A DNA stretch of 64,000 nt. It comes from Limimaricola variabilis. GTDB lineage: Bacteria > Pseudomonadota > Alphaproteobacteria > Rhodobacterales > Rhodobacteraceae. Position numbers and translations under genes: made by a program. Positions within the stretch are counted from its first letter, which is position 1. The number at the start of each line of letters is the position of its first letter. The stretch covers positions 392,463 to 456,462 of the forward strand of contig NZ_JACIBX010000001.1 in the NCBI RefSeq assembly GCF_014195545.1. Reading direction: 5' to 3'. Shown here piece by piece: positions 31,789 through 38,160 of the stretch. Below the pieces are notes generated by a model. The model searched no databases. It was given only the letters and a program-made list of their open reading frames with translations, and was not told where the DNA came from.

Positions 31789-32134
31789 GGCTGGCGATCT
31801 CGACCTCGTCGCCGTTCTGGACGGCGGAATAGAAGCAGTTGCGCCGCCCGGTGTGGCAGGCCGGACCGGATTGCTCGACCTGCAGGAGCAGGCAATCGCG
31901 GTCGCAATCGACGCGCATCTCGACCAATTTCTGCTGATTGCCCGAGGTCGCGCCCTTCTCCCAGAACTCCTGACGCGAGCGCGACCAGTAGGTCACCTTG
32001 CCGCTGGCGAGCGTCTTTTCGATCGAGGCCGCGTTCATCCAGGCCATCATCAGCACTTCGCCGGTTGCGGCCTCCTGCGCGATGGCGGGGATCAACCCGT
32101 TGGCGTCGTAGCGGAGCGTCTTGGGGTCGAACAT
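31781..32134 (-). CDS. hisI: Phosphoribosyl-AMP cyclohydrolase
   Basis: The 117-residue protein matches stand-alone His[41 protein letters not shown], and the metal-binding cysteines of [10 protein letters not shown] and [12 protein letters not shown]. It opens the purine ring of phosphoribosyl-AMP, the third step of histidine synthesis. There is no HisE domain. The start ATG 32134 was chosen by family alignment; a longer open frame upstream is antisense to the next gene. No other his genes are in the window. Confidence 0.93.
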
Positions 32135-32200
32135 CGGCACAAACCTTTTGCATCCCGGGGCGTCGTGCCTATCTAGAGGGACGATGGAAGAGAGGCAAAC

Positions 32201-32671
32201 ATGACCGAGCGCGCCAGCGGCGAGACCGACCTGATCAAGCTCTATTCGCAGCGTATCTTGGCGCTCACCACCGAGATGCCGCTGACCGAACGGCTGGCCG
32301 CGCCCGACGCCACGGTGCGCCGTCGCGCGCCGCTCTGCGGCTCGACGGTTACGGTGGACGTGACGGTCGATGACGGCCGGGTGACCGGCTATGGGCAGGA
32401 CGTGAAGGCCTGCGTGCTGGGTCAAGCGGCGGCTTCGATCGTCGGCGGCGCGGTGATCGGCCGCGACCATGCCGAGCTGAGCCGGGCCCGCGACCAGCTG
32501 CGCGCCATGCTGACCGAGGACGGGCCAGTGCCGGACGCGCCCTTCGAGGAGTTCGAGGTGCTTCAGGCCGCTCGGGAATACCGCAACCGCCATGCCTCGA
32601 TCCTTCTCGCTATCGAGGCCGCCACCCAAGCACTCGAAGAGGCACGAGCGCGACAGAGCGCGAGCGCCTGA
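32201..32671 (+). CDS. Iron-sulfur cluster assembly scaffold protein (IscU/NifU-N like)
   Basis: The 156 residues contain the IscU-like core: [16 protein letters not shown] with the first cysteine, a conserved acidic/glycine turn, and [12 protein letters not shown] with the second. A third cysteine of the classical IscU set is not evident near the end. The family holds nascent Fe-S clusters or acts in related sulfur chemistry. It is divergent from hisI and its end faces the SOS-controlled small ORF. Confidence 0.8.
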
Positions 32672-32675
32672 TCAG

Positions 32676-32710
32676 AAAAAACCGCCGCGCATCCCGGGGG
32701 ATGGCGGCGG
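32676..32710 (-). terminator. Intrinsic terminator of the small SOS-linked transcription unit
   Basis: On the - strand a 12-base-pair GC-rich stem (32699-32710 with 32682-32694, one bulged base) closed by a four-base loop is followed by six T residues (32681-32676). This reads as an intrinsic terminator for transcripts coming from the 32836-32958 ORF. It also lies just past the stop of the + strand Fe-S scaffold gene, but without T-tract in that direction. Confidence 0.8.
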
Positions 32711-32835
32711 CGCAGGCGGGATCCTTCAGGCTCCGGTGTCGCGTCGGAGCGAGGCTCCGAGTGGCGGACGGGCGATCCGCCAATGACGCCTTGCGGGACC
32801 GGGGCGCGTGACGACCGGGAATGGATCCGGGCAGA

Positions 32836-32958
32836 TCAGATCAGGCCGGGCAGCCACAATCCGACGAACAACAGGATCATGAGAGAGGCTGCGCCCAGCG
32901 CGTCGGCCACGAGCGTGTCGCGGGAACGATCCACGACCAGTTTGATTTCGCGTGCCAT
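32836..32958 (-). CDS. Small single-span membrane protein, 40 residues, under an SOS box
   Basis: The ORF encodes a basic/amphipathic N-terminus (MAREIKLVVDRSRDTLVADA) and one hydrophobic span at ~21-39 (ASLMILLFVGLWLPGLI). AGGAGACGAGG just upstream of the ATG at 32958 is a good ribosome-binding site. A consensus LexA box lies 62 bases before the start and a hairpin with T6 ends the unit. The layout recalls SidA, the 29-residue SOS-induced inner-membrane division inhibitor of Caulobacter, but no sequence relation can be claimed. A protein of this length could arise by chance; the combined signals argue that it is real. Confidence 0.75.
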   Translation of the reverse strand: MAREIKLVVDRSRDTLVADALGAASLMILLFVGLWLPGLI

Positions 32959-33019
32959 AACCTCGTCTCCTCTCTGCTCCTGTTGCCACTTTGTTCTCAT
33001 CGGGGCGGCGTTCTGTAAA

Positions 33020-33034
33020 GAACTTTATGAGAAC
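33020..33034 (-). promoter_or_regulatory. LexA (SOS) box, GTTC-N7-GTTC
   Basis: On the - strand the bases read GTTC-TCATAAA-GTTC, an exact match to the LexA operator consensus of alphaproteobacteria. It lies between the end of recG and the 40-residue ORF, both on the - strand, so it can only serve that ORF. Two further GTTC half-sites on + (32993-32996 and 33010-33013) make 9-base and 5-base inverted repeats with it. Confidence 0.85.
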
Positions 33035-33080
33035 ACTTTGCGCGATTTTATATAAGATACTGAAATTAAATAGAACTTTT

Positions 33081-38160
<5,080 letters not shown>

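What the first reader, a model, noticed from the sequence alone, without database searches (positions are those of the whole stretch)
32676..33034. SOS-controlled 40-residue membrane protein, a possible SidA-like checkpoint gene
A consensus alphaproteobacterial LexA box (GTTC-N7-GTTC on the - strand, 33020-33034), a 40-residue ORF with one membrane span and a good ribosome-binding site, and a hairpin with T6 at 32676-32710 form a complete self-contained unit of about 330 bases. No DNA repair gene is positioned to use the box. Caulobacter SidA, a 29-residue SOS-induced inner-membrane division inhibitor, is the known parallel in layout; sequence relatedness is not claimed. Tiny genes of this kind are usually missed by annotation.
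Basis: partly seen in the sequence, partly recalled or inferred. Interest (0 to 1): 0.78.

Follow-up and report, generated by a model that had tools for sequence, protein, structure and literature searches.

The report
SOS-switched micropeptide with structured RNA tail
Next to a DNA-repair gene, most members of one bacterial family carry a tiny gene that looks switched on by DNA damage; it encodes a roughly 40-residue membrane peptide followed by a conserved folded RNA, and together they may hold back cell division until the damage is repaired.

Summary
The LexA box, 40-residue membrane ORF and terminator are real and conserved. Of 58 homologous loci, 56 keep GTTC-N7-GTTC upstream, overlapping a -35-like element. 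A peptide profile matches 279 of 295 family genomes at E<=1, 255 of them below 1e-3 (my count), and nothing convincing elsewhere in the class. recG lies upstream in 83 of 86 loci.

New: the stretch between stop codon and terminator is a covarying multi-hairpin RNA with repeated, mostly unpaired CUGYC motifs. A blind genome search gave 96 hits; 94 lie directly behind the peptide ORF. No curated family searched covers either part.

Proposed function: a LexA-repressed division checkpoint with two outputs, a SidA-like peptide and a DinR-like 3' RNA. In many genera the ftsZ leader is complementary to the RNA motifs beyond shuffles and other leaders. That pairing is at chance in the window's own genus, and own-versus-cross pairing shows no co-evolution, so the ftsZ step is a hypothesis. 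SidA membership is not shown. No expression data were available.

The parts
33020..33034 (-). LexA box GTTC-N7-GTTC (GTTCTCATAAAGTTC)
   Evidence: kept in 56 of 58 homologous loci; same box type before lexA and recA of this genome
33014..33019 (-). -35-like hexamer TTTACA directly behind the box
   Evidence: a -35-like sequence (liberal pattern, set after seeing the alignment) follows the box in 56 of 56 loci with a box; promoter use is inferred
32982..32996 (-). second, degenerate LexA-like site GAAC-N7-CAAC (possible second operator or -10 region)
   Evidence: GAAC-N7-NAAC in 55 of 56 loci with a box, exact GAAC-N7-GAAC in 2; function inferred
32967..32972 (-). Shine-Dalgarno GAGGAG
   Evidence: sequence; SD-like in 55 of 58 loci
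32836..32958 (-). ORF of 40 codons plus stop: single-span membrane peptide MAREIKLVVDRSRDTLVADALGAASLMILLFVGLWLPGLI, predicted N-in/C-out
   Evidence: M1, D19, G22 and L34 invariant and L36, P37 nearly so in the 49 aligned; some more distant members lose G22
32713..32835 (-). structured 3' RNA: long closing stem, hairpins, CUGYC-like motifs mostly unpaired in the family
   Evidence: fold z = -3.0; models R1 and R2; covariation
32675..32712 (-). intrinsic terminator (GCCGCCGCCATCCC/GGGATGcGCGGCGG, T6)
   Evidence: terminator-ended 3' region in 62 of 68 loci

Best explanation
A LexA-repressed DNA-damage checkpoint transcript with two products. LexA sits on a box that overlaps the -35 element; RecA-triggered LexA cleavage releases it. 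The roughly 0.3-kb transcript is translated into a 40-residue, N-in/C-out, single-span membrane peptide with an invariant Asp at the membrane entry and a conserved L-x-L-P at the periplasmic end, which most likely docks on a late divisome protein and blocks constriction. The 3' part, a multi-hairpin RNA ending in the terminator, displays repeated CUGYC motifs in unpaired stretches and most likely base-pairs with the ftsZ leader and ribosome-binding site to lower FtsZ synthesis. Shown: sequence conservation, box, coding selection, RNA structure, linkage, family-level complementarity. Inferred: LexA binding, induction, topology, divisome target, ftsZ repression. My own odds: LexA-controlled unit 0.93; functional structured RNA 0.95; division arrest as the role 0.45; ftsZ as the RNA's target 0.3.
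For: Box in 56 of 58 homologous loci and a -35-like element behind it in 56 of 56. lexA and recA carry the same box type. Of 13 family genomes without a detected lexA, 5 lack the peptide, against 15 of 282 with lexA (p = 0.0008). pN/pS 0.27. RNA: covariation score 0.231 against 0.126 in shuffles (0 of 500 reach it) on a MAFFT alignment of ten; 262 doubly changed cells against 74 and 234 against 70 on model-fitted alignments. RNA directly behind a peptide ORF in 94 of 96 blind hits. CUGYC unpaired probability 0.67 against 0.43 over the whole RNA, higher in 51 of 55. ftsZ leader: CAGGCRG at the ribosome-binding site in 30 of 33 family genomes (one with a doubtful start) and 0 of 16 outside; 38 of 39 genomes with the locus against 3 of 15 without (exclusions in Tried and rejected). 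Longest RNA-ftsZ complement (-75 to +3) 9.05 against 7.79 in shuffles (p = 0.0014, 19 genomes) and 7.61 for 25 recA/lexA leaders (p = 0.0005). Precedents: SidA (PMC4211646, passages) and DinR, an SOS 3'-UTR sRNA that represses ftsZ (PMC10907235, abstract and one section).
Against: No expression, binding or phenotype data. In the window's own genus RNA-ftsZ complementarity is at chance: 6 nt in the -28 to +3 window in 8 of 8 genomes, and 8-9 nt over -75 to +3 in the five genomes tested, reached by 28-65% of shuffles. In the -28 to +3 window the 26-genome test is not significant (p = 0.098), nor is the comparison with each genome's own hisI (17 genomes, p = 0.21). Own RNA pairs no better with own than with other genomes' ftsZ (9.05 against 8.75, p = 0.59), so no pairwise co-evolution is seen. 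The ftsZ motif contains the ribosome-binding site and could be a family trait unrelated to the RNA; the presence/absence tests are not corrected for phylogeny or genome completeness. Three genomes with the peptide but no recognisable RNA keep the ftsZ motif (G138, G330, G335); one such genome lacks it (G011). The window's own RNA was missed by the blind search and scored only E 0.13 with the model not trained on its genus. Helical periodicity of peptide conservation is not significant.
Confidence: 0.42

Rival explanations
1. The peptide alone is the effector, a SidA/YneA-type divisome inhibitor; the 3' RNA only sets mRNA stability or timing.
For: LexA box, single span, invariant residues that suggest a protein partner.
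Against: The RNA is conserved through compensatory changes with repeated unpaired motifs, more than a stabiliser or terminator needs.
Confidence: 0.25
2. An SOS-induced membrane-active peptide of the TisB/DinQ kind that depolarises or slows the cell, with the structured 3' part controlling its translation or decay.
For: Tiny hydrophobic SOS peptide with a structured mRNA, as in type I toxin loci (recalled; PMC3567139 and PMC8309996 seen as search listings).
Against: No sign of 5'-3' pairing in the mRNA: own -36.8 against cross -37.7 kcal/mol, 56 loci. Fixed D, G, L and LP positions point to a specific partner. No antisense RNA was looked for.
Confidence: 0.15
3. The RNA is the main product and acts as a multi-site regulator or protein sponge (repeated motif in loops, as in CsrB-type RNAs; recalled), with targets other than ftsZ.
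For: Several near-identical CUGYC motifs in many of the RNAs, mostly unpaired; no pairwise co-evolution with ftsZ.
Against: ftsZ leaders exceed recA, lexA and hisI leaders in complementarity. The peptide is under coding selection.
Confidence: 0.13
4. Chance box and ORF, or only the tail of the recG transcript.
For: A GTTC-N7-GTTC is expected about once per window.
Against: The conservation results.
Confidence: 0.01

Closest known systems
SidA of Caulobacter crescentus (29-residue SOS-induced inner-membrane division inhibitor acting on FtsW; PMC4211646, passages read)
   Same: LexA-controlled (here predicted from sequence); one membrane span; very short
   Different: the profile found no convincing relative outside the window's family; 40 residues; sits behind recG; carries a conserved structured 3' RNA
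DinR of Klebsiella pneumoniae (sRNA processed from the 3' end of LexA-controlled dinI; represses ftsZ; PMC10907235, abstract and section 12 read)
   Same: RNA at the 3' end of an SOS-type mRNA; complementarity to the ftsZ ribosome-binding region in many genera
   Different: no claim of homology; host ORF is a membrane peptide, not DinI; structure conserved across a family, whereas the paper calls the pairing stretch of DinR specific to Klebsiella; ftsZ repression not shown here
TisB and DinQ (SOS-induced toxic single-span peptides of E. coli; search listings only, rest recalled)
   Same: LexA-controlled, tiny, hydrophobic
   Different: no antisense RNA gene shown or sought; no sign of 5'-3' mRNA pairing
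YneA, SosA, DivS (SOS-induced division inhibitors of other bacteria; SosA from the PMC6851548 listing, YneA and DivS named in PMC4211646 passages)
   Same: division inhibitors in SOS regulons; small membrane proteins (partly recalled)
   Different: no relatedness tested or claimed; different lineages

Membership tests
LexA (SOS) regulon of the window's family | GTTC-N7-GTTC operator at the promoter | tested here: met
   56 of 58 homologous loci; same type before lexA (21 of 21) and recA (15 of 16 family genomes); consensus GTTCN7GTTC for Caulobacter in PMC12700426 (passages)
LexA (SOS) regulon of the window's family | LexA- and RecA-dependent induction by DNA damage | not testable with these tools
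   no transcriptome in reach
SidA | sequence relatedness to SidA | not tested
   SidA was not fetched; indirect: best match outside the family among 385 class genomes is E 0.007, within a 246-residue frame
SidA | very short single-span membrane protein behind a LexA box | tested here: met
   40 aa, one hydrophobic span (KD19 2.24), box
SidA | inhibits division through FtsW | not testable with these tools
   needs experiment
DinR-type SOS 3'-UTR sRNA | structured RNA region at the 3' end of a mRNA with a LexA box, ending in an intrinsic terminator | tested here: met
   (sequence level; no RNA was measured)
DinR-type SOS 3'-UTR sRNA | base-pairs with the ftsZ ribosome-binding site | tested here: inconclusive
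   family signal; at chance in the window's genus; no own-versus-cross difference
DinR-type SOS 3'-UTR sRNA | Hfq dependence and processing from the mRNA | not testable with these tools
   needs RNA-seq or pull-down
Type I toxin-antitoxin (TisB, DinQ) | antisense RNA antitoxin | not tested
   only a simple promoter scan of 32000-34000 was run (none found on either strand)
Any Pfam, NCBIfam, PHROG or Rfam family | match to the curated model | tested here: not met
   peptide: (only isolated weak hits, best E 0.041); RNA: no hit; 13 loci; hits far below the gathering score and outside the RNA

The most novel reading that the evidence does not exclude
This family (Rhodobacteraceae by inference) uses a single LexA-controlled transcript as a two-pronged division checkpoint: a membrane micropeptide that blocks the divisome and a conserved multi-loop 3' RNA that shuts off ftsZ translation, a convergent merger of SidA-like and DinR-like strategies, ancestral to most of the family and absent from the annotation libraries searched.
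Probability: 0.22. Interest if true: 0.88.

Novelty: new variant of a known kind. Interest (0 to 1): 0.76.

Why it matters
[quoted passage not shown] This locus is a strong candidate for such a checkpoint, found in most genomes of the family examined and only about 330 bp long, so it can be deleted, expressed or fused to a reporter at once. It also adds a micropeptide family and a structured RNA family that the libraries searched do not hold, and it would be an independent case of an SOS 3' RNA beside Klebsiella DinR.

Tried and rejected
Chance box: rejected by conservation. Rfam for the 3' region: no family (weak Ysr141 hits and one snoRNA hit lie elsewhere in the loci, below the gathering score). 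Phage or plasmid origin: no phage match, two poor plasmid matches at E 9. Helical-face conservation of the span: not significant. Hok-like 5'-3' pairing in the mRNA: not supported, own pairs not better than cross pairs. Genome-specific co-evolution of RNA and ftsZ: not supported. Pairing in the -28 to +3 window against shuffles: p = 0.098. RNAalifold on the first MAFFT alignment recovered little beyond the terminator, apparently because hairpins were misaligned; helices were then taken from majority single-sequence folds. A rough fixed-offset test of the closing stem in 25 sequences gave 116 of 175 positions paired against 97.6 in shuffles, maximum 115 of 2000 (the offset was the best of four). 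Annotating the 53 genome boxes from sequence alone was inconclusive; only lexA and recA were identified, by family search. CAGGCRG is common in the window (47 sites, 38.6 expected), so the motif alone is not specific to ftsZ. Structure prediction was not run.

Rows dropped: L057 (no homologue) from the promoter tallies; five second fetches of the same loci. From the ftsZ presence/absence count of 38 of 39 against 3 of 15 (numbers entered by hand): G011, G138, G330, G335 (peptide but no canonical RNA), G024 (ftsZ start doubtful), G150 (no start found); G015, G249 and G327 gave no ftsZ match. The 38 include G008, G022 and G030, where the peptide is present but the RNA model did not match at E<=0.01.

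Full report
WHAT IS THERE. On the - strand, between recG (stop at 33081) and a convergent NifU/SufE-like gene (32201-32671, + strand; name recalled), lie a LexA box (33020-33034), a -35-like TTTACA right behind it, a degenerate second site GAAC-N7-CAAC (32982-32996), a Shine-Dalgarno sequence, a 40-codon ORF (32836-32958), a 123-nt stretch, and a strong terminator. The box alone proves nothing: about one GTTC-N7-GTTC is expected per window, and the genome holds 53 against 36 for the reversed control.

WHOSE GENOME. That the family (f1 in the tool) is Rhodobacteraceae is my inference: a Ruegeria and a Sulfitobacter carry the same promoter, peptide and RNA, and recalled gene order fits.

CONSERVATION OF PEPTIDE AND BOX. 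tblastn found the peptide in 8 of 8 genomes of the genus and in 68 of 121 relatives at E<=10, weak ones included. Of 59 loci read, 58 are homologous; 56 of these keep the exact box, 56 of 56 have a -35-like sequence behind it (a liberal pattern set after seeing the alignment), 55 of 56 have GAAC-N7-NAAC further down, and 55 of 58 a Shine-Dalgarno-like sequence. A profile of 49 peptides matched 279 of 295 family genomes at E<=1; by my count of that table 255 are below 1e-3. Of the other 40 genomes, 30 gave a recG tail. Behind it 18 have a box-like site (N6-N8 spacing, either orientation) and a small membrane ORF, one (G335) the ORF without an exact box, one (G274) a box with no ORF recovered, eight neither, and in two the recG end was not located. 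Outside the family the best match in the class search was E 0.007, inside a 246-residue frame (385 genomes). The two named hosts came from a mistyped scan and both have a 6-base box spacer.

The peptide is under coding selection (pooled pN/pS 0.27 in the genus). In the 49-row alignment M1, D19, G22 and L34 are invariant and L36 and P37 nearly so; some more distant members lose G22. One span, positive N-terminus: N-in/C-out is inferred. Position: recG found in 83 of 86 loci, the NifU-like gene in 64 and hisI in 58 of these ~3-kb stretches (five of the 86 are second fetches of the same locus and one, L057, is no homologue).

IS IT THE LexA BOX? In this genome lexA and recA carry the same box type, 21 of 21 genomes with a lexA match have it before lexA, and 15 of 16 family genomes before recA. 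PMC12700426 (passages) gives GTTCN7GTTC as the Caulobacter consensus. Among 295 family genomes, 13 had no lexA match at E<=1e-15; 5 of these 13 lack the peptide against 15 of 282 with lexA (Fisher p = 0.0008; 5 against 35 before the recG check, p = 0.02). Incomplete genomes and shared ancestry can inflate this.

THE STRUCTURED 3' RNA. In 62 of 68 loci where the ORF was re-found by pattern, the region behind it ends in a terminator-like sequence, usually 130-215 nt past the stop; CTGTCC occurs in 43 of 62 (4.3 expected from shuffles) and CTGCCT in 48 (6.2 expected). The window's own region folds at -78.8 kcal/mol against -66.7 +/- 4.0 for shuffles, z -3.0, 2 of 200 shuffles as good. In 56 sequences folded singly, most show by eye a long closing stem with two to four hairpins, and CUGYC is unpaired with mean probability 0.67 against 0.43 overall, higher in 51 of 55. 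On a MAFFT alignment of ten sequences with helices from majority folds of the same sequences, 86.9% of cells pair (79.6% shuffled, 33-42% when slid), covariation 0.231 against 0.126, 0 of 500 shuffles. On model-fitted alignments: 262 doubly changed cells against 74 (51 distinct rows) and 234 against 70 (39 rows); these lean towards the structure by construction.

Model R1 gave 52 matches at E<=1 over 84 held sources, ten of whose loci trained it and two of which (window, L001) are one locus; the window's match is 32713-32835 (-) at 16.6 bits, E 0.13. R2, whose training set includes the window, scores it 48.6 bits; congeners not in the training set (L002, L004, L005, L006, L008) score 24.5-39.9 bits. 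A blind search of 295 family genomes with R1 gave 96 hits in 95 genomes at E<=0.01: 75 of the 76 hits with listed peptide coordinates lie 4-72 nt behind the peptide, and 19 of the remaining 20 have such an ORF in front when read, 18 of them with an exact box. In 190 class genomes the only two matches are in the family. Under these strict filters the model misses 200 of 295 family genomes, the window's among them, so how widely the RNA reaches beyond the 95 rests on the locus-level searches. In 30 recG loci chosen for a weak or absent peptide it gave no significant match (best E 0.2), although some of these show CTGYC clusters behind the ORF, such as G008, and others, such as G138 and G330, do not. 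No Rfam family covers the RNA.

WHAT COULD THE RNA DO? Klebsiella DinR, from the 3' end of LexA-controlled dinI, represses ftsZ (PMC10907235; abstract and section 12 read), so I looked at ftsZ. In most genomes of this family the ftsZ ribosome-binding site reads ACAGGC[GA]G, complementary to CUGCCUGU. CAGGCRG is present in 30 of 33 family genomes (one, G024, with a doubtful start) and 0 of 16 others; in a second set, in 9 of 10 genomes chosen for an RNA hit and 6 of 16 chosen for lacking it. Combined, with the exclusions named in Tried and rejected: 38 of 39 with the locus, 3 of 15 without (p = 1.6e-8; not corrected for phylogeny). Longest RNA-leader complement (at most one G-U): -28 to +3, 7.42 against 6.84 for shuffles (26 genomes, p = 0.098); 7.72 against 6.71 for sampled hisI leaders (36 genomes, p = 0.0003), but against each genome's own hisI 7.47 against 6.71 (17 genomes, p = 0.21); -75 to +3, 9.05 against 7.79 for shuffles (19 genomes, p = 0.0014) and 7.61 for 25 recA/lexA leaders (p = 0.0005), with matches of 11-13 nt in G012, G013 and G025. 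Against: the window's genus is at chance, and own pairing does not exceed cross pairing (9.05 against 8.75, p = 0.59). These counts ignore RNA accessibility and were chosen after the motif was seen at ftsZ. Pairing between the 5' and 3' ends of the same mRNA is not supported.

READING. The unit, its LexA control by sequence, the peptide gene and the RNA structure are well supported. That it restrains division is the best guess from two precedents with the same inputs (SidA for the peptide, PMC4211646 passages; DinR for the RNA) plus the ftsZ signal. It should be called SidA-like in layout, not a SidA.

NOVELTY. Searches for a prior description (open-licence PMC papers only) showed none in the listings seen. 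In PMC6473078 (12 of 28 matching passages seen), the predicted LexA targets of Dinoroseobacter shibae that I saw do not name such a gene. PMC9438474, PMC5089854 and PMC4809877 were searched by term only; supplements were not read. Subscription papers were out of reach.

Noticed in passing
L274, ftsZ leader of the window's genome, about -75 to +3 of ftsZ; also other loci of L263-L291: The family's ftsZ leader carries a GACGGG stretch near -40 in several genera, a GGCAGAAA-like stretch near -50 in a few, and ACAGGC[GA]G at the ribosome-binding site; its conservation deserves study even apart from the RNA.
   Followed up: partly
L112 7414-7466, L113 4182-4234: A Ruegeria and a Sulfitobacter carry the same promoter with a 6-base instead of 7-base box spacer; LexA may tolerate this or the control may differ there.
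   Followed up: no
window 32982-32996 and the same place in 55 of 56 relatives with a box: A second LexA-like site with a systematic departure (usually GAAC-N7-CAAC) is about as conserved as the main box; it may be a weak second operator or part of the -10 region.
   Followed up: partly
39 of 56 loci with a box, just upstream of it: A third GTTC half-site stands 5-7 bases upstream of the box in many relatives (tttGTTCacaaatGTTC...), suggesting cooperative LexA binding; the window lacks one at that spacing.
   Followed up: no
G161:C1:426094-426225: The only blind RNA-model hit known to lie away from the peptide (27.5 bits); either chance or a free-standing copy.
   Followed up: no
L259 (G211:C118:7504-8645): An RNA-model hit for which my filter found no peptide ORF in front, although the profile matched a peptide elsewhere in that genome's search row; not resolved.
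   Followed up: no
G015, G036, G040, G221, G249: Family genomes in which neither lexA nor the peptide was found; possible SOS-free lineages or incomplete assemblies.
   Followed up: partly
window 35174-38160: NAD-dependent DNA ligase and a CtrA-like response regulator (names recalled from the sequences) lie just beyond recG, so cell-cycle and repair genes cluster around this unit.
   Followed up: no
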